DNA from: Candidatus Bathyarchaeota archaeon
GTDB lineage: Archaea; Thermoproteota; Bathyarchaeia; TCS64
Assembly: GCA_030593155.1 (NCBI GenBank)
Contig: JAUVHT010000010.1
Location: 1 to 12,412, forward strand
Direction: 5' to 3'
DNA: 12,412 nt
This document shows, piece by piece, positions 1 to 12,412 of this stretch. Every line of letters begins with the position of its first letter. Position 1 is the first letter of the stretch. The position numbers and the translations under genes are program-made. Under the pieces are notes generated by a model, which searched no databases, was not told the DNA's origin, and saw only the letters and a program-made list of their open reading frames with translations.

Positions 1-1911
1 GGAGACACATACACAGAACGCTCCAAAAAACTCAGCGACCTCATCAGATGGGGCCAAGAACGGGCCCGAGTCTCCCTCCTCCTCGACAACTCCGAACGGG
101 AGAACGGCAGAAGACCCATACCCCGATTCGACAGCGACCTCATCAGGCTCACCCGCAACCTGAGGCGGGACGGCAAGTACTGGTTCGAGATCAACCAGAA
201 AAGCGCCCAGAAATACGAGGTCGTAGACATCCTGAAAGGCCTCGGCTTCGACCCAAGCAACATGCTCATCATAATGCACCAGAGCATGCCCACCCGCTTC
301 GCCGCCCTCTCAAACACGGACAAGCTGAAAACCCTGGAAACAGCCGTGGGATTCGAGACCTACCGCGCAGACGTCGTTGAGGCCAAGAACAAGCTCGGCG
401 GCATCCTCAGCGAGGAAGATAGCCTCAACGAGCTCTTGGACAGGGCCAACGAGACCCTGGGCTACTGGAGAGAGCAGTACGAACGGCTCCAGATCAAGAA
501 GCAGCACCAGACCCGCATCATCTTCCTCCAACGGGAGATGGCCTGGAGCAGGGTCACAGCCCTCGAGGAGGCCCACCGGAGCCTGGAGCAGGATCTGGAA
601 AGCGCCGACTCCGAACTATACGAGGCGGAGGCGGAGATGGATCGGAACAGCAAGCTCGTCCTCGACACCCACGACGAGCTCAAAAAACACCAGGGCGCCT
701 GGGAAGGTCTCGTGGAGCGACGCGTCGGCCACGAGAGGACCATCGGCATCTGCGAGTACACCATCCGGAACTCCAAAGAGTCCCTCATCCAGCTAGACAC
801 CATGATAAAATCATCAGGGGAGAACCGGCGGAGGTTCGAGATCGGAGCCGAGGCGCTGAGGTCGAAGCTCAAATCAGGCCCCACCACCCTGGACGACTAC
901 TTCAACCTCTTGGCCGAGATCGAGAGGACCCAGACAGACACATACGACTCCTGGAGCACGGAACTCGGGGAGCAGAGAACCGAGATCCAAGGCTCCATAG
1001 ACTCCCTGAGCGCCCAGCTCGGCCAGGCCGAGGCCGGAGCCAGAGACGTGATCCAGGAGATGTCCCGGGTCCGAACCCGGATCGACGAGGCCAACGACAG
1101 GTACATCGACGGTCGCATCGCCATGGCCCTCCTCAAGGACCGGAGGGGCAGGCTCAAACGCAGGATAGACGGCATCAAGGCCGACATGGACAGGATGAGG
1201 AGGGACCTCAACGACGCCGAGGCAGAGGCCCTCATAAAGGGCTCCAGGGTGGAGACCGGCCGGGACTCGGAGGAGATCCTCGGCGACATCAGGAAGATCA
1301 GCGGCATCCTCCTCGGCCTCGCTGACGTCTCCGAGGACGCAGAGGCCATGTACGAGTCCTACAACAGGACCTACAAGGAGCTCCAGGAGAAGATGGAGCT
1401 GGTCCGGAAGAGCCGCAGGCAGGTCATGGAGGAGATAGACGAGAGGACCAAACGGTGGCTCCAGGTCATGAGAAACCTCCTGGACGAGGTGAACAGCCGC
1501 TACCAGAACCTCCTCTCCATGCTCCAAGCCACCGGAGAGGTCAGACTCGTTGACACCATGGACATCGAGGAAGCCGGCCTAGAGATCTGGGTGGGCTTCA
1601 AAGGCGCCGCCCCGAACAGGCTCGACTCCTACACCCACAGCGGCGGGGAACGGAGCACATCGGTCATGGCCTTCCTCCTCTCCCTCCAGCAGAACATCGT
1701 CTCCCCCTTCAGAGCCGTGGACGAATTCGACCTCCACATGGACCCCAAGAACAAGGAGATGGTCTCCGAGTTCATAGTCAAAACCATGGAGGGATCCGTC
1801 GACCAGTACCTGGCCATCACCCCCAGCCAGGTAACCTTCCAAGGAGACAGCGTCCACCTCATCCTGATCCACAAAACAGAGGGCACATCCCTCATGAGGG
1901 TGGTGGAATAA
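1..1911 (+). CDS. SMC5/6-like ATPase with short coiled coil (5' partial)
   Basis: The frame is open from the first base to TAA at 1909-1911, giving 636 visible residues; the start and Walker A lie upstream. Residue numbers count visible codons. The opening stretch ([16 protein letters not shown]) resembles the region after Walker A in SMC5/SMC6. The Q-loop is MLIIMHQ with Gln94. Charged heptad-rich coil runs from about 115 to 520. The ABC signature SGGERS is at 547-552. Walker B and D-loop ([17 protein letters not shown], 568-584) carry catalytic Asp574-Glu575. DEFD is SMC6-like and MDPKN is SMC5-like. Only about 450 residues separate Q-loop and signature, roughly half the span in canonical SMCs, with no globular hinge and no CxxC zinc hook. 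The family entraps and moves DNA as ATP-driven dimers bridged by a kleisin. The next two genes fit as its kleisin and KITE partners. The SMC family call is firm; the SMC5/6 affinity is inferred from motifs. Confidence 0.9.
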
Positions 1912-1912
1912 C

Positions 1913-2704
1913 TTGGCTGATCAGGACACCCGAGCCCAGCTGGAGGGCGTCATCAACCTCTGCAGAGCGGTCTCCGAAGGCGCCCTGGACCCCTTCGCCG
2001 TGGACGCCGACTACATCCTCTCGGTGATCAGGAGATACTACCCGGATGCTGCCTCCTTCGAGGAATTCTGCCTAGACGCGGAGGCCCTCAAGGAGCTCTC
2101 CTCGGTGCTCGAGAGGCAGAACCAGTGGATCCACCACCAATCCACAACCCTCTACAAGGACCCTTTCATGCTCAGCCAGCAACTCCTCATGATGGATGTC
2201 GGCGCCATAGCGGACGCCTTCCTAAAGTCCTGGCACCCCATCGTCGAGATGGAGCAGATATCGGCAAAGACACTGACGGGCTCCCTGGCCTACTGGGGGG
2301 ACCTCCTGCCCGTAGACGAGCGGTGGAACGATCTCCAGGTCAGGCACATCGAGACGGGAACAGCCACCATGAGGGACGCCCGGGAACTCGGGATAATCCT
2401 AGAGCAAGGATTCACAGAGACCATGGAGGCCTACTGGAGAGAGATGAAGGAGAAGACGGGAAAGGACAGCCACATACACTACTGGGACTGGGTCGGCGCC
2501 GACACATACACGGAGACGTTGAAACGGGCGTTCATCACCAGCTTCCTCGTGGGCTACGGCTACGCCACCATCCGGATGGACAGGTTCATGGAGAACGTGG
2601 AGCTGAGCCCCACGGACGAGCCCAACCAAAACCCAGACGAAGACACGAGATCCCTACCGGTCCTAGTCGACTACGAGGAGTGGGAGAAATGGCGAAACGG
2701 GTGA
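1913..2704 (+). CDS. Putative kleisin-like subunit (Nse4/ScpA role)
   Basis: This is a 263-residue acidic, mainly helical protein starting at TTG one base after the SMC stop, with a purine-rich GAGGGTGG stretch ending 6 nt upstream. No in-frame ATG occurs near the start. The N-terminus (residues about 9-70) has the cadence of a kleisin N-terminal domain: a first helix, then [17 protein letters not shown], then a long helix ending in [15 protein letters not shown]. This recalls the ScpA pattern in which a DP(W/F)-containing loop follows the first helix, before a helix that contacts the SMC neck. The middle is helical. The last 40 residues include an Asp/Glu/Pro-rich linker and a short DYEEWEKW tail. 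Its position between an SMC ATPase and a double winged-helix gene, and its 16-nt overlap with the latter, are typical of SMC-kleisin-KITE operons. Sequence similarity alone is weak, so the kleisin assignment is an inference. It could be a lineage-specific accessory subunit instead. Confidence 0.5.
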
Positions 2705-3273
2705 GAAGAGCCGAGAAGGCCTACTCCAGAAAGGTGAAGGAAGCAGTGCACCTGCTCTTCTTCACCCACCACAGGCTGCCCGGCGTGAGAGGCTGGGAAC
2801 TAAGGCAGGAGCTGGGATCAGACTGGCTGGACGTGGTGGAAGTCCTAGACGCCCAGCTCAAGCCACTGGACCTCAAGGTGACCAGAGTCCTGGACAACCC
2901 GGACGCCGCGGCCGAACCAACGAGAGCCCAGCTGGCCGATGCCAGGTTCTACGTGACCATGAGAGGGACAGTGGACCAGAAGACCGCAAAGTCCATAGGG
3001 TGGAGGATCGACGACATCGCGGGCCTCGCCGTATCCATAGCCTACCTCATCTCGAAACAGGGGAAATCCCAGAGGACAGAGGTCGAGAAGATCCTCTCCG
3101 AGAAGCTGCCGGGGTGGCGGGTGAAGATGAACATCGACAGATACATAGCGCAGGGATACCTCGGCGAAGACGACAGGGGCACCCTCTACATCAACTGGCG
3201 GAGCAGGGCCGAGATCGACCAAAAGCAGCTGGTGGACCTCGTCGTCGGATTCGGGCGGAAGACCACAGCCTGA
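2689..3273 (+). CDS. Double winged-helix KITE-like SMC subunit (Nse1/Nse3/ScpB type)
   Basis: ATG at 2689 follows GAGGAG with 8 nt spacing, overlaps the previous gene by 16 nt in another frame, and gives 194 residues. The same frame is open further upstream but has no signal there. Two winged-helix units are readable. The first, at about 13-92, has helices, then [12 protein letters not shown], then strands LKVTRV and FYVTMRG. The second, at about 112-170, has [13 protein letters not shown], a recognition-type helix ending [13 protein letters not shown], and a wing GTLYINW. The FYVTMRG strand leading into a helix-rich second unit ending in [13 protein letters not shown] matches the layout of eukaryotic Nse1 and MAGE/Nse3 proteins, and more distantly ScpB. 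KITE proteins work as dimers that bind the kleisin of an SMC complex and, in Nse1-Nse3, DNA. No RING finger follows, unlike Nse1. The neighbouring SMC gene supports the assignment strongly; distinguishing ScpB-like from Nse-like needs a profile search. Confidence 0.62.
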
Positions 3274-3324
3274 TACGAGCCTCTAGATCTCAATATTTAA
3301 TCTCCTAGAACCTTGCGGCCCAGT
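3274..3324. other. 51-nt intergenic space between convergent operons
   Basis: The SMC operon (plus) and the archaeosortase operon (minus) end here, facing each other. The space is AT-rich around CAATATTTAA (3291-3300). It contains only an imperfect inverted repeat (TCTAGAT at 3282-3288 against ATCTCCTAGA at 3300-3309, with a two-base bulge). No T-run typical of archaeal terminators is evident on either strand. Confidence 0.4.
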
Positions 3325-3855
3325 CTAAGATCCGTAGGCTTGGGCCCCTATCGTCGGCTCCTCGAACAACGAGAAGTCTCCCCGGGTGAAGTAGTGCACC
3401 AGTACTTCCTCGTCGTGGTCCCACCGCCTGAACCCGTTCTCTTCCAGGATGGCCTCCGCCCTGTCCAGGCTCCCCTCCTCCGCATCGGAGACTATTACCG
3501 CCTTGTTGTTCAGCCTCCAAGCCGATTCAGGGCCGAAAAGGTTGAGCTCTTCGGGGAACAGATCCAGGTCGATCAAGTCACCCCTCTCCCTGACGTATAT
3601 GAACAGGTTCCTGCCCTGCCGGGAGTAGAACTTATCCTCCTCCGGCGGAGGCTCGATCCTTCGCTCAACTGGGGGGCGGCGGTAGAAGACGTAGCCTCTG
3701 CTCTTCAGGTAGTCTACGATGAGCTTCGCGGCCTCACGCTCGGCAGGCGTCCCGACGCGCTCCGCCGGCCTCTGGGGGGGCCGCTTCGACACCTGGGAAC
3801 GGCTCCTGAAGTATTCGAGGCTCTCGAGGAGCTCTTCAAAGGCCGTCTTCGACAT
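3325..3855 (-). CDS. Unrecognised soluble protein: helical repeats plus shared ~90-residue domain
   Basis: I do not recognise this 176-residue protein. The start is ATG at 3855, directly behind a strong GGAGGGGGTGAG; an in-frame start at 3900 lacks such a site. It is the last gene of the minus-strand operon, 41 nt after its neighbour. Residues 4-28 (FEELLESLEYFRSRS) and 38-66 (AAKLIVDYLKSRGY) each resemble the short helical repeat found many times in the upstream 402-residue protein. Residues 76-167 form a strand-rich domain (FYSRQGRNLFIYVRERGD, then LDLFPEELNLF, KAVIVSDAEEG, then HYFTRGD). This is clearly homologous to the N-terminus of the same neighbour. Order is repeats then domain, the reverse of the neighbour. 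There is no signal peptide or membrane segment, so it is probably cytoplasmic. Linkage to a glycosyltransferase and archaeosortase suggests a role in surface polymer assembly or its control, but nothing in the sequence shows a catalytic activity. Confidence 0.8.
   Translation of the reverse strand: MSKTAFEELLESLEYFRSRSQVSKRPPQRPAERVGTPAEREAAKLIVDYLKSRGYVFYRRPPVERRIEPPPEEDKFYSRQGRNLFIYVRERGDLIDLDLFPEELNLFGPESAWRLNNKAVIVSDAEEGSLDRAEAILEENGFRRWDHDEEVLVHYFTRGDFSLFEEPTIGAQAYGS
3355..3630 (-). other. Shared ~90-residue domain, copy B (C-terminal in the 176-residue protein)
   Basis: Residues 76-167 of the small protein align along their length with residues 4-96 of the 402-residue neighbour. Shared landmarks are (F/Y)YSR near the start, IYV(R/T)R, DLxLFPxEL(N/E)LF, a hydrophobic AxI strand followed by an acidic (D/E)AE-type turn, and (H/Y)Y(F/V)xxxDxSxFE at the end. 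Predicted fold is mixed alpha/beta. I cannot assign it to a known family. Confidence 0.75.
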
Positions 3856-3896
3856 CTCACCCCCTCCTCTTCCACCACAACTTCGATTCCTTTTTT

Positions 3897-5105
3897 TCAC
3901 GATTCCCGGTTTTCCTTCTTGAGGCGCTCGCCGAGGAGCTTCAGCACTTCCTCTGGGAACTTGGGCTTCCCCTCGGTCTTCAGAGGCGCGACCTGCTCGT
4001 TCCAGCGAAGCATGGTGAGCGGCCTGTGAAGCTCATTCGACGGGGGACCCCTCGTCTCCCTGACGTCGGATCCCCTTATCGGGAGCCTGCTCTTGACGTA
4101 TTCGACTATGTGCCTGTCCAGCTCCTCCTCGATCGAATGACGCTTTTGGATCGCCGGCGTCGTCTCAGCCGCCTGACTCCTGAGATAGTCAGAGATCCGC
4201 ATGATCAACTCCTCCGTCGAAGGACTCGGCGTCTCAGCCTCGACTGGAACCGGGGTTCGGCTACTGACGAACTGCGTGAACTCGTCAACTAGCTCGTCCA
4301 AGGCGGTCTTCGGCGTCTCCATTTCCTGGGGTCTAGGTGTAATGCTCTTAACGTAACTGGATATTTGCCTGAGTAGTTCATCTAAAGACAACTCAGCCGG
4401 AGTAGGCCGCAGGGGGGCCTTTGCCTTTAAGGTTTCGCTCAGGAGCTCGATGAGCTCATCCCCCGCAGATTTTTCGTCGTGGGTGTCGTTTCGACCACGT
4501 CTCGGAGTCTCGATCTCAGAAGGCTCACGCTCCTTCTCGATCTGGAAGCCCTGGCTCCTCATCCAGAGGACCAGGCTGTCAATCAGCTCCTCCTCGGAAG
4601 CCGGCCTCCTGCCTTGGTCCGCATCATGACTTTCTGCCGTGGGTTCCTGAGGTTTCCACATTTTCCCGGGGCGAACTCTTACCACATCCTTAGCGTCTTC
4701 GTGGTTGTCTAACATATAACCTAGAGTGGGGCTAGTAGACCTCGGGATGATGACGTCTGTCTCCCTCCTTTCGGTTGGTCTTTCAGCGTCTTTCGAATCC
4801 GCCTTTTTCCTCCCAAGAGGGTCGCCCTCGAAGACGGAGTCATCGCCTACAACGTAATAGTGCTCCAGAATCTCCTTCGGATGATCCCTCTTCTTGAACC
4901 CGCTCAGGCTGAGGATGATCTCCGTCTTGTCGACGTTCGCTTCAGCAGCTCCCGTGATGATGGCCATCCTCTCGTTCACCTTCTTTGGCTTTTCAGGGTC
5001 GAACAGTTCTAGCTCGGGGGGGAAGAGACTCAGATCCGCCATCGAATCGTTCCTGGTGACGTAGATGTACAGAACCCCATCATGCCTTGAGTAGTATCTT
5101 CCCAT
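3897..5105 (-). CDS. Unrecognised soluble protein: shared domain plus ~28-residue helical repeats
   Basis: I do not recognise this 402-residue hydrophilic protein. ATG at 5105 abuts the archaeosortase stop with no spacer and has GGGAGAG upstream, so the two are probably translationally coupled. Residues 4-96 are the shared domain also found in the next gene. Residues 100-168 are a charged, apparently disordered linker. Residues 170-345 hold about six degenerate repeats of the form xxELxxxIxxYxxSxxP followed by a Pro/Glu/Thr linker often ending ETP. The conserved Leu falls at 174, 218, 244, 272, 300 and 329, so the last four units have a 26-29 residue period. A further FPEEVLKLLGERLKK helix closes the protein. 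No signal peptide or membrane segment is visible, pointing to the cytoplasm. The repeats resemble a string of short amphipathic helices on flexible linkers, which suits multivalent binding or scaffolding. Membership of the archaeosortase operon is the only functional clue. Confidence 0.87.
   Translation of the reverse strand: MGRYYSRHDGVLYIYVTRNDSMADLSLFPPELELFDPEKPKKVNERMAIITGAAEANVDKTEIILSLSGFKKRDHPKEILEHYYVVGDDSVFEGDPLGRKKADSKDAERPTERRETDVIIPRSTSPTLGYMLDNHEDAKDVVRVRPGKMWKPQEPTAESHDADQGRRPASEEELIDSLVLWMRSQGFQIEKEREPSEIETPRRGRNDTHDEKSAGDELIELLSETLKAKAPLRPTPAELSLDELLRQISSYVKSITPRPQEMETPKTALDELVDEFTQFVSSRTPVPVEAETPSPSTEELIMRISDYLRSQAAETTPAIQKRHSIEEELDRHIVEYVKSRLPIRGSDVRETRGPPSNELHRPLTMLRWNEQVAPLKTEGKPKFPEEVLKLLGERLKKENRES
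4071..4598 (-). repeat. Coding tandem repeats, about six units of ~28 residues
   Basis: Units begin at residues about 170, 214, 240, 268, 296 and 324 of the 402-residue protein. Examples are SLDELLRQISSYVKS, ALDELVDEFTQFVSS, STEELIMRISDYLRS and SIEEELDRHIVEYVKS. Each helix is followed by a Pro-rich linker (TPRPQEMETP, TPVPVEAETP). The second unit is followed by a shorter gap and the first by a longer one. Divergence between units shows the repeat is old, not a recent slippage product. Confidence 0.75.
4818..5096 (-). other. Shared ~90-residue domain, copy A (N-terminal in the 402-residue protein)
   Basis: Residues 4-96 (landmarks YYSRHDGVLYIYVTRND, DLSLFPPELELF, AIITGAAEA, HYYVVGDDSVFEG) are the homologue of the C-terminal domain of the small downstream protein. 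Having one copy at each end of two adjacent genes implies duplication followed by domain shuffling within the operon. Family unknown. Confidence 0.75.
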
Positions 5106-5768
5106 TTACACATCTCTCCCAAAGTCTTGATCCTTTCCGTCAATTTTTCCCACTGAGACTGGTTTATCCCGTGAAGTATCTTCGCCAATGTTTGCACCGT
5201 CTTTTTTCACGAGGATGCCGTCGAATGCGTAGCTCCAGAAGGCTCCCATCCAAAGCAGCGTGAGGAGCGTTCCGATGTAGTCGTGGAAGATGATGGCGGG
5301 TATGTAGTCTACCTTATAGGCGATCAGTGTCGGTATCAGTATCCGTACCATATTAATGAGGAAGGTTCCTTCCACCCCTATGAGGATCGTGACGAGCTTG
5401 CTGCGCCGGGTGTAGGACCCCTGGAGGCCTGTGATTATCGTGAGGGCGAGCAGTATGAAGCTCTGCCATCCTATGCAGTTCCAGTTGATGTAGACCCTCA
5501 AGGGCATCCACCCGCCCGTCAGATAGAGGAAGGAACCGTCGGCGGAGGCGGGCACCCCCAAGGCCCGTAGCAAAACGACCAGGACTTTCACTATGAAGGG
5601 AGCCGCGACGCCCTGCATCGCATTGACGAAGTGGAGGCTCTCCACGACCTTCGTGAGGACCTCGTTGAACGACGTGATGAACGGGAGCACGATGAAGGCT
5701 ATCGCCGCGTACAGGATAAGCTTCTGGTAAATCTTCCCTTCGAGGTACTTTTCAGTGGTCTGATTCAT
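5106..5768 (-). CDS. Archaeosortase/exosortase family transpeptidase
   Basis: This 220-residue polytopic membrane protein starts at ATG 5768, overlapping the glycosyltransferase stop as ATGA, with GGAGGGAT upstream. It carries the three invariant residues of the family in order, each in or next to a membrane helix: Cys98 in NWNCIGWQS, Arg142 in INMVRILIP and His162 in FHDYIG. Hydrophobic segments lie at about 18-34, 54-72, 98-114, 126-150 and 160-180. A charged, soluble tail of about 35 residues follows. Family members cut a C-terminal tripartite signal (short motif, membrane helix, basic cluster) on surface proteins and are thought to transfer them to a lipid or glycan anchor. Archaeosortase A of haloarchaea is the studied example. 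The neighbouring membrane glycosyltransferase recalls the exosortase-glycosyltransferase pairs of bacteria. The subfamily cannot be settled by eye. The most obvious nearby candidate substrate is the C-terminus of the glycosyltransferase itself. Confidence 0.92.
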   Translation of the reverse strand: MNQTTEKYLEGKIYQKLILYAAIAFIVLPFITSFNEVLTKVVESLHFVNAMQGVAAPFIVKVLVVLLRALGVPASADGSFLYLTGGWMPLRVYINWNCIGWQSFILLALTIITGLQGSYTRRSKLVTILIGVEGTFLINMVRILIPTLIAYKVDYIPAIIFHDYIGTLLTLLWMGAFWSYAFDGILVKKDGANIGEDTSRDKPVSVGKIDGKDQDFGRDV

Positions 5769-8077
5769 CTAATCCCTCCATGGTGTGACTTCCTCCATTT
5801 TCTGGCCTTCAACACGAACAGTGGGATGAGGGGCGCGATCAACATGAACGGCAGTAGGTACTCTGGCATGACTATCCCCGGGAACTCGATCACGGATTCC
5901 TTACTCAAGGAGTCGTAGTCGAGGTAGTACTTCTCGTCTCCCTCTCCTATGACCCATATCTCGACCACGATGCTGTGGCCGGTCCTGAACATTACGGATT
6001 TCTGCACTTCAACCGGGAGACGGATGGCTTCTGAGGGTGAATCTGAACCGAGCTCCACACCTTTGATCTGGTATGATATCTTATGATCCAACTCGCCGTC
6101 GGTGTCGAGGTCTGCTATCTTGATCTTTATGTTAACGGTTCTTTTAGCGTCCGAATACAAGTAGAGGTAGAGATCCACGCCCCTCTTCAGCTTGTAGTCC
6201 TCCTCCAGCGGTCCATATAGATAGAAACCCCAGGCTTTCTGCCAGTCATCGCCAGATATCGTGTAGTTGTCTGTACGCCCCGGTCCCAGCATGTCGTGGT
6301 CCGGGTGTGTCAATATCCGGTTGGTCAGGTGTCCGTTCACGCTCACGGCTGAGGTCACATACTCAAAGGTGAGAGCCGTCGTCTGGTATCCATCATCGAG
6401 TGTGGACATCGCAGCCGCAGTCACCCAGACGATTATGGACGACATCAGGATCAGGAAGATCAGGGCCAACGCAGAGGGCCTACGCTTCCTCCTATCTGTC
6501 TCCTGCTTCTCTCTTCTCGAGGGTTCCCTCCTCGGCAGGATCCAACTGAAGAGCCGCCTCACCCTGACCTGGAGGATCCGGTCGGTGATGCTACCGGTTT
6601 TAAACGTTCTGACCCAGCCGCTCTCATCTTTCGCGATAAGGCCTTTCACCGCAGCGTAAGCCTGGAAGGGCGTCAGAATGTACGACAGGACTATGAACGA
6701 GAATATCCCGGTGAAGTCCTCCCTCGCCGTCTGTTCCAGGTACAGCCCTGATAAACTCATCAACGGCAGCGCGAAGAGGTTGCTGAGGATGAGACTCCAG
6801 CCGAAGGTGGCCGTCCAGAAGGACGGATGCTGCGCGAGGATCTCCGCCACGACCCAGAAGAAGGTTCCTATCAAGAAGAAGAAGGATTGGAGGTAGTAGG
6901 GTGCGAAATATAGGAACTCTAGCTTCTCCCTGCGCGTCAAGTTGGGGGATCTAAGAACGTCCCAGAAATACTTCTTGACGGCGAAGGTGTGGCCCTCGGC
7001 CCAGCGCATCCTCTGGCGGGCTATGGCTCGGACCGTGGTGGGTATCTCGGCCGGCGCCTGGATCAGCGGCGTGTACAGAACCTTCCAGCCGTCCAAGTAC
7101 ATCCGGAGGGTGAGGTCCCAGTCCTCGGTGATGCTGTGGGTCCACCCCAGCTTCCTCAGGATCTCGGCCCTGATCATGAAGACGCTGCCGGTGATCATCT
7201 TCATGGACCCGAAGAACTCCTCGGACACCCGCTCGATCATGTAACCCCCGCTGAACTCGCACCTGATCCCCTTGGTGATCCAGTTCTCGTTCTTGTTCAG
7301 GTGGTGGAGCTGGTACCCCTGCACAACGCCTATCCGACGCCTCTCGTACCACTCGTCTACCCTCTCGAAGATATCGACCTCGGGTTCGTCATCCTCCCCG
7401 TTGACGTAGCGGTTCATCACCTCGTCTGCGAACCTATGCCCCTCTCCGTTCTCGTGGTTGCCGTTCCTCCCCTGGCCCTCGAAGTACCAGATGAACTTCT
7501 TAAGGATGTCCGGCGGTGGGATGAAATCGGCGTCCAGCACTACGGCGTACTCGGTCCGGGGGTCCATATACTGCACGGCCTTCTGTAGGGCGCCCCCCTT
7601 GAACCCCGTCCTGTCCTTCCTGTGGATGAACTTGATGGTGGGGCCTTCGGTCCTCTTGTTGAGCTCTTTCAGGATCTCGATTGTCTCGTCCCTGGAGTCG
7701 TCCGCCACCATTATCTCATAGTTCGTGTAGTCGATGTCCACGCAGGCTTGGATGATCCTCCTGGCGACGTTCTTCTCGTTGTAGAAGGGGAGCTGTATAG
7801 AAACGAAGGGCTCCCTGATCAGGCCGTTTTCCAGGGCTCCGTTGAAGAAGTTGCCGTTGTTATTCTCCTTCGACTGTCTGCGGAAGGGCTCCGGTGTACC
7901 ATTCCCCAGGAGGGAGTTCTTGTTATTCCCGTTCTTCCAATTGTCTCCGTTTTTCCTCCCGCTGAAGAGGGCGATGAGTATGGCGAAGTAGTACTTGCAG
8001 GCGAACAGGAAGAAGAAGAGGCCCACGGTCAGTGCAACGTAGGAGAACGCTTGTCCTATGATCACCAGCGTTGACAC
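5765..8077 (-). CDS. Membrane GT2 glycosyltransferase with extracytoplasmic beta domain and sorting-like C-terminus
   Basis: This 770-residue processive-type glycosyltransferase resembles cellulose/hyaluronan synthases. It starts at GTG 8077, 8 nt after GAGGAGGT; an ATG at 8085 is in another frame. After one or two N-terminal membrane segments (about 6-40), a GT-A domain runs from 91 to 365. It shows VSIQLPFYNE, ADDS (125-128), KGGAL, the metal-binding DAD (182-184), the catalytic-base region TEDW (317-320) and QRMRW (355-359). Membrane helices follow at about 388-412, 423-447, 455-480 and 535-558. Residues 560-735 form a strand-rich domain, likely outside the cell, of the kind found before C-terminal anchors of archaeal surface proteins. 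The end (EFPGIVMPEYLLPF, hydrophobic stretch, then KARKWRK) has the layout of an archaeosortase signal. Asn/Gly-rich inserts interrupt residues 43-86 and 201-248. It probably polymerises a sugar on the inner face and exports it. It is first in a four-gene operon. Confidence 0.95.
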   Translation of the reverse strand: MSTLVIIGQAFSYVALTVGLFFFLFACKYYFAILIALFSGRKNGDNWKNGNNKNSLLGNGTPEPFRRQSKENNNGNFFNGALENGLIREPFVSIQLPFYNEKNVARRIIQACVDIDYTNYEIMVADDSRDETIEILKELNKRTEGPTIKFIHRKDRTGFKGGALQKAVQYMDPRTEYAVVLDADFIPPPDILKKFIWYFEGQGRNGNHENGEGHRFADEVMNRYVNGEDDEPEVDIFERVDEWYERRRIGVVQGYQLHHLNKNENWITKGIRCEFSGGYMIERVSEEFFGSMKMITGSVFMIRAEILRKLGWTHSITEDWDLTLRMYLDGWKVLYTPLIQAPAEIPTTVRAIARQRMRWAEGHTFAVKKYFWDVLRSPNLTRREKLEFLYFAPYYLQSFFFLIGTFFWVVAEILAQHPSFWTATFGWSLILSNLFALPLMSLSGLYLEQTAREDFTGIFSFIVLSYILTPFQAYAAVKGLIAKDESGWVRTFKTGSITDRILQVRVRRLFSWILPRREPSRREKQETDRRKRRPSALALIFLILMSSIIVWVTAAAMSTLDDGYQTTALTFEYVTSAVSVNGHLTNRILTHPDHDMLGPGRTDNYTISGDDWQKAWGFYLYGPLEEDYKLKRGVDLYLYLYSDAKRTVNIKIKIADLDTDGELDHKISYQIKGVELGSDSPSEAIRLPVEVQKSVMFRTGHSIVVEIWVIGEGDEKYYLDYDSLSKESVIEFPGIVMPEYLLPFMLIAPLIPLFVLKARKWRKSHHGGIR

Positions 8078-8265: not shown

Positions 8266-8300
8266 GTCTCTAGAATGATATATGTTCCTGTTGATATGTG

Positions 8301-8618
8301 ATGTCGGAGAACACCCACAGCGAACTCCGGAGGAGGTTCGTGAGGAGCTTCCTCGATCTGATAGTGTTACGCATGCTACTGGATGAACCCCTCTGGGGCT
8401 ACAGGATCATGTCTAGGATGATGGAGGCCTATGGCATCAAGGTCGGTCCACCCGTGATCTATCCCCTCTTGGAATCCCTGGAATCTGAAGGACTTTTAGA
8501 GTGTAATGAGATCTACGAGGGGAAGAGGAAGAGAAAGGTCTACAACACAACCCCTCTTGGCGTGGAGAAAATTAAGCAGTTCGCAGACGTCCTAGGAGAG
8601 TTCTCAGGTTCGGTTTAG
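8301..8618 (+). CDS. PadR-family winged-helix transcriptional regulator
   Basis: This is a 105-residue minimal PadR protein. ATG at 8301 is chosen; GTG at 8298 directly before it is possible. Hallmarks are LIVLRMLLDEPLWGYRIM, the IYPLLESLESEGLL recognition region, and a wing with EGKRKRKVYNTT ending in PLGVEKI. PadR proteins are dimeric repressors that bind inverted repeats through the winged helix, using a C-terminal helix for dimerisation. This one has only the single short helix after the wing, as in small PadR subfamily 2 proteins. It is divergent from the glycosyltransferase-archaeosortase operon across 223 nt holding several inverted repeats, so it probably represses that operon and perhaps itself. 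The ligand is unknown. Its stop codon abuts the stop of the convergent MinD-like gene. Confidence 0.93.
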   Translation: MSENTHSELRRRFVRSFLDLIVLRMLLDEPLWGYRIMSRMMEAYGIKVGPPVIYPLLESLESEGLLECNEIYEGKRKRKVYNTTPLGVEKIKQFADVLGEFSGSV

Positions 8619-9401
8619 CTACAGCTGGTCTTCCAACCGTTTCGCGACCTCGCCCAAGGCCCATGTAAACGGGTGCTCTGGCTTGTCCAGGGCGAAGAGG
8701 GACACTCTCTGAGCCAGGAGTATATCGCAGTAGCACGGGATGATCGCGATCAGGGGCTGCGTGAAGCGGCCCTTTATGGACTCAACGAGGTTTTTCTGGC
8801 TGTCATCTTCGAAGAACATGTGGGGGGTGGCCTTGTTTACGAGGACGTAGGTCTTCTTCTCGAAGGGCTCGTAGAGATCCTTGACCATGCGCTGGGCGCC
8901 TTCGAGATCCAGGAGGTCCATGCTCGAAACGATGACACACACGTCGGAGCTGACGACCGCGTTCACCGATGAATACTGGACCCCCGGGCTAGTGTCGATT
9001 ATAATGATCTCTACTCCGAACTGATCGGCAAGCTCCTGTTTCATCGACATGATCCGTTTCAGGGCCCTCATCTGCCACTTCCTGTCCTTCCTGGCGATAT
9101 CCCTCATGGCGTCCATCTCGACGTTGGCAAAGCCCACGAGGAACCTCCCCTTGGTCTTGTACCTATCCGTCAGGTCCACCATGACGTCTCCGATCTTGGC
9201 TTTCCCGTCCAGGTAGTCGTTGACCCATCTCCTGACGTTGTTCTTCGCCTGGAATATGGTCAGGAGGCTGGGGGCCCTGAAGTCGAAGTCGAGGAGGGCG
9301 ACGTTCCGCCCCTTCGCAGCCAGGATTACGCTTATGTTACTGGATATGAGGCTCTTGCCGGTGCCTCCCCGGCTTGAGTGGATCGAGATCGTTTTCACCA
9401 T
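8619..9401 (-). CDS. MinD/ParA-like P-loop ATPase
   Basis: This is a 260-residue member of the SIMIBI MinD/ParA group. ATG at 9401 is preceded by GGTGAG at 5 nt spacing, which overlaps the previous stop codon. A GTG at 9410 has no such site. The deviant Walker A at 11-17 is RGGTGKS: the signature Lys, which in this family reaches across the dimer, is Arg here, while the catalytic-loop Lys16 is kept. Walker A' is DFDF (38-41), the Walker B region is IIIIDTSPG (132-140) and VNKA (188-191) contacts the base. There is no obvious C-terminal amphipathic MinD membrane helix, though the last helix (AKRLEDQL) is short and charged. Relatives position cell structures such as division sites, archaella, pili or chromosomes. 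It follows a zinc-ribbon/winged-helix protein gene with essentially no spacer, so that protein is the likely partner. The exact cargo is unknown. Confidence 0.93.
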   Translation of the reverse strand: MVKTISIHSSRGGTGKSLISSNISVILAAKGRNVALLDFDFRAPSLLTIFQAKNNVRRWVNDYLDGKAKIGDVMVDLTDRYKTKGRFLVGFANVEMDAMRDIARKDRKWQMRALKRIMSMKQELADQFGVEIIIIDTSPGVQYSSVNAVVSSDVCVIVSSMDLLDLEGAQRMVKDLYEPFEKKTYVLVNKATPHMFFEDDSQKNLVESIKGRFTQPLIAIIPCYCDILLAQRVSLFALDKPEHPFTWALGEVAKRLEDQL

Positions 9402-9410
9402 TTCGCTCAC

Positions 9411-10490
9411 CTACGATATTACGGAGAAGAGCACCTGCCGACCCTTCCTCTCCTTTTTCAGGTAACCCATCCTCACCAGCTGGTTCAGATAGCCGCTCTC
9501 GACGGCCCTCGCCCTCTTCGTCATGTCAGAGATCTCGTCGGCCGTCGTCTTTCCCTTCTCACACACCACGGAAGCCGTCTTCCTCAGGTGGTCCGGGAGG
9601 GAAAGGAGAGTCATGACATCGAGAGTCTCAAATTTGAACTCTTCTACGGGGGGGATCACCTTGAGCAGATCCTTCCAGAGAGTGCCGAGATCGCGGGTCT
9701 CCACGACATCTATGTCATACTGCTCTGCGAGTTTTCTCGCCTTCCTCGTCAGCCCCGGAAACGCCACCAGGATGGACCTGGGAGGGTTCGTGTCGAAGAC
9801 CTTAGCGAACATGGATATTACTTTGTCCTCTCCCACATCATCGTCGGAGACCACGAAATCCAAGGCGAGGATCACCTCGCTCTGGTCGTCGCTCCTGGCC
9901 GTGATGTCGAAAAAATGCTCCACTTCGGATTCACCTGTCATGAACCCGGGGCTCTCGGTGTCGTACCCCCGTTCGTGGAGGAACTCGAGCAGGGGTTTTA
10001 TCGCCAGCCGGTCTGAGATCTTCTCTATCCCTTCTTCGCTGAACTTGTAGCAGAAAATAGGCCTGACCGATAGGTCCCCCTTCAGGATCAGTACGCCGCA
10101 GCTGCGGCATCTCCAATCCGCATCGCCGGATTTTGCCCTCTTCGAAATCTCATTTTCTCCTGATGATCCGCTGTTTCGAATAGTATTTGTGTCCTGTCTG
10201 TCCGATTTGAGGAGCTGGTCGATGTTGCTTGAACCGCATCCAGGGCAGCACACGAGGACACCGCAGACCTCCGAGGTCAGGAGATTGATGTCCTGAAGCG
10301 ATTTCAGGAAGGCCTCGGCATCCTCTGGTCTGTCGACGAAGACCTCCGCGCCGGGGTATCTGTAGCCTAGTTTTTCGTCCAGGACCGGGTAGAGGCTTTC
10401 GAGCTCTCCGTCGAGGAATCTACCGATGAATAGCTGGACTCGGCTGTCCGCGAATAGTCCCTCTTTCTTATCCGGCTTTTTCCCGCTCAA
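9411..10490 (-). CDS. Zinc-ribbon, nuclease-fold-like and winged-helix protein (possible TackOD1-type regulator)
   Basis: This 359-residue protein starts at TTG 10490, with GAGGG about 9 nt upstream; no better ATG precedes it. Residues 20-75 form an alpha/beta N-terminus. A zinc ribbon follows, with CPGC (82-85) and CRSC (128-131). Its two halves are separated by a Ser/Asn/Asp-rich linker, and Cys147 lies just after. Residues about 165-268 resemble a restriction-endonuclease-like fold (HFFDITA, VILALDFVVSDDD, SMFAKVFDTNPPRSILVAF, ARKLAEQYDIDVVE). I cannot pick out a complete PD-(D/E)XK active site, so it may be inactive. Residues 300-357 are a winged helix (KTTADEISDMTKRARAVES, then LVRMGYLKKERKGRQVLF). 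The overall plan recalls the TackOD1 output proteins of TACK archaea, recalled from general knowledge and uncertain. It is the first gene of a two-gene operon with the MinD-like ATPase, suggesting a sensor or adaptor working with that ATPase, or a DNA-binding regulator. Confidence 0.85.
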   Translation of the reverse strand: MSGKKPDKKEGLFADSRVQLFIGRFLDGELESLYPVLDEKLGYRYPGAEVFVDRPEDAEAFLKSLQDINLLTSEVCGVLVCCPGCGSSNIDQLLKSDRQDTNTIRNSGSSGENEISKRAKSGDADWRCRSCGVLILKGDLSVRPIFCYKFSEEGIEKISDRLAIKPLLEFLHERGYDTESPGFMTGESEVEHFFDITARSDDQSEVILALDFVVSDDDVGEDKVISMFAKVFDTNPPRSILVAFPGLTRKARKLAEQYDIDVVETRDLGTLWKDLLKVIPPVEEFKFETLDVMTLLSLPDHLRKTASVVCEKGKTTADEISDMTKRARAVESGYLNQLVRMGYLKKERKGRQVLFSVIS

Positions 10491-10612: not shown

Positions 10613-11812
10613 ATGGACTTCCCCACGACAACGGTTCGAGAGGGCACCTCCGTTATTAGGGTACCCGAAATTAGTCAGGAAGAGGGGGAACCCCTTGAAC
10701 ATGCCAGATCGAGAGCCCCCGTGTTCTACAACCCCCGGATGAGGATGAACAGGAGTACGGCGGTCCTTGCCTTGGGTGTTCACCAGAGGCGGGTTTCGAG
10801 GCCGTTGACTGTCTGTGAGCCGATGTGCGGGACGGGGGTGAGGGGGGTACGGCTGGCCCTTGAGTCGCCCGGGGTTGAGCGGGTCGTGATGGGGGACATG
10901 AATCCAAAGGCCATCAAGCTTGCGAGGGAAAACGCCCATATCAACGGCGTGTCGGGCGTTGTGAACGTGAGGCTCATGGAGGCCAACCTCCTCTTGTCAA
11001 TCCATTCCAAGCCACTATCTCGATTCGACTACGTCGACGTCGATCCCTATGGATCACCAGCCCCGTATCTAGACGGAGCCATCAGGGCGTGCAAGAGGGA
11101 CGGGATGCTGGCGTTGACGGCCACCGACATGGCCCCCCTCTGCGGCGTTAACCCGAGGGCTTGCCTGCGTAAATACGGGGGCCGCCCCCTCAGGACAGGG
11201 TACTGTCGCGAATCTGCGTTGAGGCTCGTCGCTGGGGCCCTCGTGACCGCGGCCGCCGTCCACGAGGTCTCCACGAAACCCGTGTTCAGCTACGTGGCGG
11301 ATCATTATGTCCGTCTGTACGTGAAGCTGGGAAGGGGGAAGAAGAATGTGGACAGACGCCTGTCAGAGATGGGGTACATTCTCCACTGTTTCAAGTGTCT
11401 CAACAGGAAGGCGGTGTCTAGTCGGAGCATCTTCGATTCCGCCGTGTGTGGACATTGCGGATCTCCGATGGGGGCTGCGGGGCCGATGTGGCTGGGGGAT
11501 CTGGCAGAAGAGGCCTTTTGCGACGACATGCTGACGCTGTCCGAAAGGTCCGCCATCAGCAGCAACCTGAGGCTCATCCGCATAGTTCAAAGAGTCAGGG
11601 GGGAGATAGGATTCCCCCAAGGTTTTTACAGCATAGATAAAATATGTTCAAAGCTCGGAATGCCGTCAAGGGCGACGGGCGAAGTCATCTCGGCGATAGA
11701 GGAGGCGGGATTCAGGGTGGCGAGGACCCACGTAGACGATAGAGGCTTGAAGACGGACGCCCCGATAGGGGAGCTGATGGACATCGTAAAGTCGATCAAA
11801 ACCGACGGGTAG
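10613..11812 (+). CDS. trm1: tRNA (guanine(26)-N(2))-dimethyltransferase Trm1
   Basis: This 399-residue protein is of typical archaeal Trm1 length. It uses S-adenosylmethionine to make N2-methyl- and N2,N2-dimethylguanosine at position 26 of tRNA. Family landmarks are FYNPRMRMNRS (38-48), SAM motif I CEPMCGTGVRG (68-78), GDMNPKAI (94-101), the catalytic DVDPYGSP (142-149) and LTATDMAPLCG (168-178). SYVADHYVRLYV follows (226-237), then a zinc site formed by Cys259, Cys262, Cys279 and Cys282, and a C-terminal domain with GPMWLGDL and a winged-helix-like tail. ATG at 10613 places the conserved N-terminal EGTSVIRVP strand correctly. Little or no leader is expected. The ftsJ-type gene starts 9 nt after its stop, so the two RNA methyltransferases probably share a transcript. 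Confidence 0.97.
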   Translation: MDFPTTTVREGTSVIRVPEISQEEGEPLEHARSRAPVFYNPRMRMNRSTAVLALGVHQRRVSRPLTVCEPMCGTGVRGVRLALESPGVERVVMGDMNPKAIKLARENAHINGVSGVVNVRLMEANLLLSIHSKPLSRFDYVDVDPYGSPAPYLDGAIRACKRDGMLALTATDMAPLCGVNPRACLRKYGGRPLRTGYCRESALRLVAGALVTAAAVHEVSTKPVFSYVADHYVRLYVKLGRGKKNVDRRLSEMGYILHCFKCLNRKAVSSRSIFDSAVCGHCGSPMGAAGPMWLGDLAEEAFCDDMLTLSERSAISSNLRLIRIVQRVRGEIGFPQGFYSIDKICSKLGMPSRATGEVISAIEEAGFRVARTHVDDRGLKTDAPIGELMDIVKSIKTDG

Positions 11813-11821
11813 GGCACAAGG

Positions 11822-12412
11822 ATGTCGAGCAGGTGGTTCAACGAGAGGAAAAACGATCCCTACTACAGGTGGGCGAAGGAGCAGGGGTACCGCTCTCGGG
11901 CGGCCTTCAAGCTAATCCAGCTTGAAGAGCGCTTCGGCTTTCTGGAGGGTGCGCGCAACGTGCTTGACCTGGGGGCGGCACCCGGCGGATGGCTCCAGGT
12001 GGCCAGCGAATCGCTCGGCGATGAAGGCCTCGTCCTTGGGGTAGACCTCTACGAGATCGAGCCCCTCGGCCTCCCGAACGTCGAGACCTTGGTCGGGGAC
12101 ATCACCGACGAGGAGACCCAGGATGAAATCATGGACATGTTCCAGGGGAAGATAGACGTCATCCTTTCTGATATGGCCCCCGACGTCAGCGGAACATGGG
12201 ATCTGGACCAGTATCGCCAGATATACCTGGCCAGGGTGGCGTTGGTCATCGCAGACAGGCTGTTGAAGAGGAAGGGTTGGATGGTGATCAAGACGTTCCA
12301 GGGCTCGGAACACGGCAAATTCGTCCGGGAGATGAGGGACATGTTCGAGACGGTGAAGATAGTCAAGCCGAAGGCCACGAGGAAGAAGAGCGCGGAGATC
12401 TACCTCGTCGCG
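11822..12412 (+). CDS. FtsJ/RrmJ-family rRNA 2'-O-ribose methyltransferase (3' end outside window)
   Basis: ATG at 11822 opens a frame with no stop up to the window end, giving 197 visible residues. That is nearly the whole family core of about 200 residues; an extra domain could still follow. The SAM motif DLGAAPGGW is at 49-57. The catalytic K-D-K-E tetrad is complete: Lys30 (YRSRAAFK), Asp117 (LSDMAPD), Lys157 (VIKTFQG) and Glu192 (KSAEIYLV). The RKSAEIY-type end motif shows the core is finished. The bacterial homologue methylates the 2'-O of U2552 in 23S rRNA; archaeal members are annotated as RlmE-like and some carry a C-terminal TRAM domain. It lies 9 nt downstream of trm1 with an AAGG just before the start. 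Confidence 0.95.
   Translation, partial: MSSRWFNERKNDPYYRWAKEQGYRSRAAFKLIQLEERFGFLEGARNVLDLGAAPGGWLQVASESLGDEGLVLGVDLYEIEPLGLPNVETLVGDITDEETQDEIMDMFQGKIDVILSDMAPDVSGTWDLDQYRQIYLARVALVIADRLLKRKGWMVIKTFQGSEHGKFVREMRDMFETVKIVKPKATRKKSAEIYLVA

What the first reader, a model, noticed from the sequence alone, without database searches (positions are those of the whole stretch)
1..3273. Compact archaeal SMC5/6-like operon: SMC ATPase, kleisin candidate and KITE subunit
Seen: three tightly packed same-strand genes, an SMC-type ATPase followed by a helical protein with kleisin-like N-terminus and a double winged-helix protein. Known: SMC-kleisin-KITE is the core composition of Smc-ScpAB, MukBEF, Wadjet and eukaryotic SMC5/6. 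Inferred: motif details point to SMC5/6 over canonical archaeal Smc-ScpAB, so this could be a prokaryotic relative or precursor of the SMC5/6-Nse complex, or a defence-type SMC system.
Basis: partly seen in the sequence, partly recalled or inferred. Interest (0 to 1): 0.85.

Follow-up and report, generated by a model that had tools for sequence, protein, structure and literature searches.

The report
Archaeal hinge-less SMC5/6-like DNA clamp operon
Bathyarchaea and related archaea carry, next to their ordinary chromosome-folding machine, a second and much smaller one whose parts most resemble the core of the eukaryotic SMC5/6 DNA-repair complex but which lacks the hinge that normally closes the ring.

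Summary
In detail: three same-strand genes, an SMC ATPase cut by the window's left edge, a kleisin and a small winged-helix (KITE-like) protein. The operon is conserved, adjacent in 74 of 80 loci. The ATPase groups with eukaryotic SMC5/SMC6, not with canonical SMC or Rad50-like proteins. The kleisin's best matches by profile and by predicted structure are Nse4, then ScpA. The KITE's best matches, weak, are the Nse3/MAGE and Nse1 families. Relatives' genomes hold a separate canonical smc-scpA-scpB operon. Best reading: a constitutive SMC5/6-type ATP-gated DNA clamp for genome maintenance, without a hinge-closed ring. Archaeal 'SMC5/6-related' SMC proteins are in print (PMC9389158). My searches found no description of partners or hinge loss, but the likeliest paper (Cell Rep 2025, 115855) could not be read. 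Defence is unlikely. Whether it is ancestral to SMC5/6 is open; Asgard genomes were not searched.

The parts
1..1911 (+). Short, hinge-less SMC5/6-like ATPase, cut at the 5' end (636 of about 690 aa; Walker A lies outside the window). Signature SGGER, Walker B FRAVDEFD.
   Evidence: full-length relative L001:7139-9211 modelled
1913..2704 (+). Kleisin (263 aa, TTG start): N-terminal helical bundle with a long helix, C-terminal winged helix; Nse4-like
2689..3273 (+). KITE-like protein (194 aa from ATG 2689, overlapping the kleisin by 16 nt). The motif [11 protein letters not shown] is invariant or nearly so in 32 members and looser in the wider set.

Best explanation
A second, chromosomally inherited SMC complex of Bathyarchaeia and other Thermoproteota: an archaeal relative of the SMC5/6 core, with (inferred) two copies of one short SMC ATPase, one Nse4-like kleisin and KITE subunits. 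Shown by computation: the relationships, the operon, and the absence of a hinge. Inferred: two heads engage through ATP; the kleisin joins the neck of one to the cap of the other; a KITE dimer bound to the kleisin's middle closes over DNA lying on the heads. This is the DNA clamp that yeast Smc5/6 forms with Smc5-Smc6-Nse1-Nse3-Nse4. Without a hinge there is no hinge-closed ring, so it should act as an ATP-gated clamp or tether on DNA (repair or fork maintenance) rather than as a long-range loop extruder. Chromosome folding would be left to the separate Smc-ScpAB.
For: SMC: profile A5 against PDB sequences, the 9 best are all SMC5/SMC6 (182-190 bits), before archaeal Smc (161.5), SMC2 (116) and Rad50 (46). 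Four canonical SMCs of the same genomes give the reverse order, Smc 468, SMC4 323, best SMC5 63 bits. Tree: short SMC + SMC5 + SMC6 100/97, 99/99 without the Smc4 row; AU rejects short+canonical (p 0.011) and SMC5/6+canonical (p 0.004). Kleisin: Nse4_C at E 0.1 or better in 23 of 61 and 22 of 39 members, best 3.5e-7; PDB profile hits Nse4 7.2e-7, EID3 4.6e-4, ScpA 0.003; Foldseek's only hit under 1e-3 is chain F of 7qcd (Smc5/6; Nse4). KITE: MAGE 12 of 32 (best 2e-5), SMC_Nse1 12 of 32 (best 1.2e-4). Hinge: PF06470 in 13 of 22 genomes, once each, in a 962-1199 aa frame and never in the operon SMC. The predicted structure is head plus helices 174-345 and 353-468 joined by a 7-residue turn. Walker A to signature is 442-564 residues against 1050-1058 in 9 canonical SMC. 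Usually single copy. Clamp precedent: yeast Smc5/6 (PMC9191643, passages); hinge-less EQ-mutant Smc5 and Smc6 sub-complexes interact detectably only with ATP (PMC8327961, passages).
Confidence: 0.7

Rival explanations
1. Full SMC-type motor: the hairpin tips, or kleisin- or coil-mediated contacts, dimerise two protomers into a closed small ring that extrudes or translocates DNA like other SMC complexes.
For: An SMC head, an Nse4-like kleisin and a KITE-like gene are present together. [quoted passage not shown]
Against: No hinge; no CxxC in the coil of 63 copies; coil length and tip sequence vary strongly between lineages, 572-756 aa, unlike a conserved dimer interface.
Confidence: 0.25
2. An anti-plasmid or antiviral defence complex, a Wadjet- or Lamassu-like relative.
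For: Kleisin, KITE and SMC are also JetA, JetB and JetC of Wadjet, and human SMC5/6 restricts extrachromosomal DNA (PMC10586767, passages). PADLOC models match the SMC: mad3 92-110 bits, LmuB 62-96, JetC 33. A DUF2357/PDDEXK_7 gene lies beside the KITE in 7 of 80 loci.
Against: Present in 90 of 121 genomes of the class and 141 of 349 of the phylum, usually single copy, not sporadic. No PADLOC model matches kleisin or KITE at E 0.001. Beyond the three genes the commonest neighbour is an Lhr-type helicase (30 of 80); no other cluster exceeds 19 of 80.
Confidence: 0.12
3. A DNA-end or break-repair tether that works like RecN or Rad50, the kleisin-KITE acting only as a scaffold.
For: A hinge-less hairpin of this size recalls RecN and ASRP (recalled). 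The NCBIfam ASRP model scores 66.9 bits (cut-off 300) and Rad50 models 48-56 bits on the L001 SMC.
Against: The ATPase groups with SMC5/6 and away from four Rad50-like rows; scores are far below the curated cut-offs; Nse4-like kleisin.
Confidence: 0.15
4. A degenerate canonical Smc-ScpAB.
For: NCBIfam's best match is the prokaryotic SMC model (196.5 bits; cut-off 729.4).
Against: A canonical smc-scpA-scpB is present beside it in the same genomes; the tree and reciprocal profiles disagree; the short form is conserved in 63 complete copies.
Confidence: 0.03

Closest known systems
Eukaryotic SMC5/6 core (Smc5, Smc6, Nse1, Nse3, Nse4)
   Same: Head phylogeny, Nse4-like kleisin, Nse1/Nse3-like KITE, weakly
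   Different: One short SMC gene instead of two long ones, no hinge, one KITE gene per genome as a rule; no RING family among the KITE's Pfam matches
Archaeal 'SMC5/6-related' SMC (Yoshinaga and Inagaki; PMC9389158, parts 1-3 of 4 read; their 2021 paper not held)
   Same: An archaeal SMC group that clusters with SMC5 and SMC6
   Different: The parts read describe no kleisin, KITE or loss of hinge for that group; its sequences could not be compared here
van Hooff et al., Cell Rep 2025, 115855 (bioRxiv 2024.01.07.573240)
   Different: Not held; known here only from citations. It may already describe this complex
Hinge-less marine actinobacterial SMC (PMC12153180, passages)
   Same: SMC head and coiled coil without hinge and without zinc hook
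   Different: Annotated as Actinomycetes and not found in tandem with regular SMC; no kleisin or SMC5/6 mentioned (term counts 0). Here an archaeal paralogue coexists with canonical SMC. The sequences were not compared
Smc-ScpAB, and the archaeal Smc-ScpA without KITE (PMC7055376, passages)
   Same: SMC plus kleisin; ScpA is the kleisin's second-best relative
   Different: Separate operon in the same genomes; the KITE does not match ScpB

Membership tests
Eukaryotic SMC5/6 complex | ATPase heads group with SMC5/SMC6 rather than SMC1-4, canonical SMC or Rad50 | tested here: met
   SMC1-4 were tested only by profile ranking, plus one Smc4 N-head row that joins the SMC5/6 side at 85/71
Eukaryotic SMC5/6 complex | Nse4-type kleisin | tested here: met
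   the window's own Nse4_C match is under the cut-off (17.5 of 26 bits)
Eukaryotic SMC5/6 complex | Nse1/Nse3 tandem winged-helix KITE | tested here: inconclusive
   searches support it weakly; searches give nothing; no structure was predicted
Eukaryotic SMC5/6 complex | Two SMC paralogues (heterodimer) | tested here: not met
   (E 1e-20 or better): in the 6 genomes searched, one short SMC locus each; the further matches lie in frames of 1174-1199 aa
Eukaryotic SMC5/6 complex | Hinge domain and long arms | tested here: not met
Eukaryotic SMC5/6 complex | Nse2 SUMO ligase and Nse5/6 loader | not tested
   no search was made for them
Smc-ScpAB | Hinge-bearing SMC of about 1,180 aa with ScpA and ScpB | tested here: not met
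   that complex is a separate operon (L105)
Wadjet / MksBEF | JetA/JetB-type kleisin and KITE | tested here: not met
   no PADLOC model matches kleisin or KITE at E 0.001 (a JetC model matches the SMC at 33 bits)
Wadjet / MksBEF | JetD nuclease | not tested
   JetD was not searched for; no fourth gene is conserved in more than 30 of 80 loci, and the commonest is helicase-like
Rad50 / ASRP | Zinc-hook CxxC at the coil apex | tested here: not met
   0 of 63; ASRP model 66.9 of 300 bits
Archaeal SMC5/6-related SMC (Yoshinaga and Inagaki) | Clusters with that published sequence set | not testable with these tools
   their 2021 paper is not held and its sequences were not at hand

The most novel reading that the evidence does not exclude
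The minimal, hinge-less and possibly homodimeric form of SMC5/6 exists as a core genome-maintenance complex in Bathyarchaeia and other Thermoproteota, side by side with Smc-ScpAB. If so, SMC5/6 is older than eukaryotes as a whole kleisin-KITE complex, and its basic activity is an ATP-gated DNA clamp that needs neither hinge nor ring, so an SMC complex can work without loop extrusion.
Probability: 0.4. Interest if true: 0.88.

Novelty: new variant of a known kind. Interest (0 to 1): 0.7.

Why it matters
SMC5/6 is the least understood eukaryotic SMC complex, and its loop-extrusion and clamping activities are hard to separate. A natural SMC5/6-type complex without a hinge would separate them. It would also make the origin of SMC5/6 testable: whether the whole kleisin-KITE complex predates eukaryotes. 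It shows archaea with two SMC gene sets, Smc-ScpAB and this one, in the same genomes.

Tried and rejected
Defence (PADLOC; breadth): ATPase matches for the SMC (mad3, LmuB, AriA, PtuA, a weak JetC), none for the partners; widespread and usually single copy. KITE as a ScpB: hhalign probability 0.4, and no PF04079 match at the operon. KITE PDB profile searches: nothing meaningful. Reach beyond Thermoproteota: 3 of 243 genomes of the phylum of G013, the genome whose record is titled Thermoplasmata. Asgard genomes were not searched, because no handle for one was at hand. The last protein search listed 120 rows, all 646-693 aa, so it says nothing about long relatives. Zinc-hook search to collect Rad50: 6 of 16 genomes; four frames with SGGE (L114, L115, L116, L119) served as outgroup and are called Rad50-like only on that ground. 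Literature: ten searches found no description of partners or hinge loss for the archaeal SMC5/6-related proteins; only open-licence PMC papers are held.

Rows dropped before counts. SMC ORFs running off contigs, and L003, L012 and L016 (best ORFs 194, 457, 291 aa, fragments), are not in the length range. Kleisin alignment A3 holds 61 rows (30 of the 120 listed database proteins); A8 holds 39 of 40 loci (L066 left out) and A7 38 of 40 (L066, L067 left out). The first tree used 12 of the 28 rows of A5 and 14 of the 40 later loci; the second tree left out 13 of 52 rows, Smc4 because it is half-filled and long-branched, the others to save time. Walker A is found in 63 of 63 copies and SGGE in 62 of 63 (L074 lacks it). 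My strict Walker-B pattern missed 13 of 63; the eight misses printed read DEYD or DEFE. Organism names given to PDB chains (yeast, human) are recalled except where a call's description names them.

Full report
WHAT IS THERE. The window opens inside an SMC-type ATPase gene (1-1911, 636 aa, 5' open). The kleisin gene starts 1 nt after its stop (1913-2704, 263 aa, TTG), and a 194-aa gene (2689-3273, ATG) overlaps the kleisin by 16 nt. The window is archaeal: the named homologues are mostly Bathyarchaeota (one row is labelled a Patescibacteria bacterium). No whole genome of the window is held, so genome-level statements concern relatives.

CONSERVED OPERON. A scan of species genomes with the KITE alignment confirmed 40 loci: 26 titled Bathyarchaeota, one titled Thermoplasmata, the rest Terraquivivens, Calditenuaceae, Thermoproteota, HR02 or uncultured archaea. 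With 40 further stretches chosen from the matches of a phylum-wide search, SMC, kleisin and KITE are adjacent on one strand in 74 of 80 loci. L004 and L026 are cut by contig ends. L057, L059, L073 and L084 have kleisin and KITE here and a short SMC (569-607 aa frame) elsewhere in the genome. The KITE profile matches 141 of 349 genomes of the phylum, 90 of 121 of the class (wider profile) and 3 of 243 of the phylum of G013, usually once per genome.

THE ATPASE IS SMC5/6-LIKE. Against PDB sequences the profile of 28 such SMCs ranks nine SMC5/SMC6 sequences first (190-182 bits), then archaeal Smc (161.5), SMC2 (116), SMC3 (110), SMC4 (98), SMC1 (94) and Rad50 (46). A profile of four canonical SMCs from the same genomes ranks Smc 468, SMC4 323, SMC3 284, SMC2 263, SMC1 254 and best SMC5 63 (that profile includes the hinge, which favours long SMCs). 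A head-domain tree of 52 rows puts 26 short SMCs with Smc5 and Smc6 of yeast and SMC5 of human at 100/97, apart from 18 canonical rows and 4 Rad50-like rows. Against a clean picture: the canonical rows hold together at only 62/82, and an Smc4 N-head row joins the SMC5/6 side at 85/71. Without Smc4 (39 rows) the clade has 99/99, and the AU test rejects short+canonical (p 0.011) and SMC5/6+canonical (p 0.004), but does not decide whether SMC5 and SMC6 form one clade (p 0.39). Branches to the eukaryotic rows are long, the programme warns of long branches meeting, and the window row holds only the C-head.

IT HAS NO HINGE. The 63 complete copies are 572-756 aa, median 621. Walker A to signature is 442-564 residues against 1050-1058 in nine canonical SMCs, and none of 63 has a CxxC in the coil. 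The hinge family PF06470 occurs once in each of 13 of 22 genomes, in a 962-1199 aa frame and never in the operon SMC, and in 9 of 22 genomes of a second, slightly overlapping set, in frames of 1183-1469 aa. Single scans of the window fragment, of L001 and of four divergent copies show SMC_N but no hinge. The AlphaFold2 model of the L001 SMC (pLDDT 83.7) is an ATPase head with helices 174-345 and 353-468 joined by a 7-residue turn of low confidence; its four best structural matches are Smc5/6 chains.

THE KITE IS PROBABLE, NOT PROVEN. MAGE (the Nse3 family) and SMC_Nse1 each match 12 of 32 members at E 0.1 or better (best 2e-5 and 1.2e-4), but only 4 and 2 of 38 in the divergent set. Of ten scanned singly, six match one or both, all below cut-off and mostly in the C-terminal half. 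The window's own protein gives SMC_Nse1 at 0.098 as 191 aa and nothing at 0.1 as 194 aa. There is no meaningful PDB profile hit and no alignment to ScpB. No structure was predicted, because the two structure jobs went to kleisin and SMC.

TWO SMC GENE SETS IN ONE GENOME. ScpB (PF04079) is found in 21 of 23 genomes. In all 16 of those 23 that have a hinge match, a ScpB match lies within about 3 kb of the hinge on the same contig (my count). ScpA at the search threshold is found in only 2 of 23. In L105, from a record titled chromosome, the ORFs are SMC 2250-5834, a ScpA-like ORF 5838-6497 (55% identical to the Pfam-matched one of L113) and ScpB 6497-7126. The short SMC therefore supplements Smc-ScpAB.

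HOW IT MOST LIKELY WORKS. Shown: relationships, operon, missing hinge, Walker A in 63 of 63 and SGGE in 62 of 63 copies. Inferred: an ATP-driven head dimer bridged by the kleisin and roofed by KITE subunits, a DNA clamp. In yeast the five core subunits clamp duplex DNA between heads, Nse4 and Nse1/3 (PMC9191643, passages), and hinge-less EQ-mutant Smc5 and Smc6 sub-complexes interact detectably only with ATP (PMC8327961, passages). Lacking the hinge, it should hold DNA without a hinge-closed ring. A role in repair or fork maintenance is suggested by analogy and by a convergent neighbour that is an Lhr-type helicase in the one representative scanned and whose cluster occurs in 30 of 80 loci. 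Defence is disfavoured.

NOVELTY. An archaeal 'SMC5/6-related' SMC group is in print (PMC9389158, parts 1-3 of 4), and so is a hinge-less SMC in marine Actinomycetes (PMC12153180, passages). My ten literature searches found no account of the kleisin-KITE partners or the hinge loss for the archaeal group. van Hooff et al. 2025, whose title covers this ground, could not be read. I therefore call it a new variant of a known kind.

Noticed in passing
window 3325-3900 (-) and 3897-5105 (-): Two neighbouring genes share a domain of about 100 residues (40% identity) and have no convincing Pfam match. A cluster that looks related by eye lies beside the operon in 10 of 80 loci.
   Followed up: partly
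window 5106-5768 (-) and 5765-8077 (-): An exosortase/archaeosortase-like protein overlaps the gene of a large family-2 glycosyltransferase.
   Followed up: no
window 8298-8618 (+), 8619-9410 (-), 9411-10490 (-): PadR-like regulator, MinD/ParA-like ATPase and a protein with weak TackOD1 and winged-helix matches.
   Followed up: no
window 10613-11812 (+) and 11822-12412 (+, cut): tRNA dimethylguanosine methyltransferase (TRM) and an FtsJ-like methyltransferase.
   Followed up: no
L039:11015-13876 (-) and clustered ORFs: Lhr-type helicase (DEAD, DEAD_assoc, WH_Lhr) convergent with the KITE gene; its cluster occurs in 30 of 80 loci, only 2 of them among the first 28.
   Followed up: partly
L024:2513-4126 (-) and clustered ORFs: A DUF2357/PDDEXK_7 nuclease-like gene lies beside the KITE in 7 of 80 loci, all among the first 28.
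   Followed up: no
L105:2250-7126: A canonical smc-scpA-scpB gene order in Bathyarchaeota with ScpB adjacent, of interest because archaeal Smc-ScpA was proposed to lack a KITE (PMC7055376, passages).
   Followed up: partly
L057, L059, L073, L084: Split operons: kleisin and KITE without the SMC next door (in L084 the kleisin too lies about 2 kb off); the short SMC is elsewhere in the genome, about 6-10 kb away in two of the four.
   Followed up: partly
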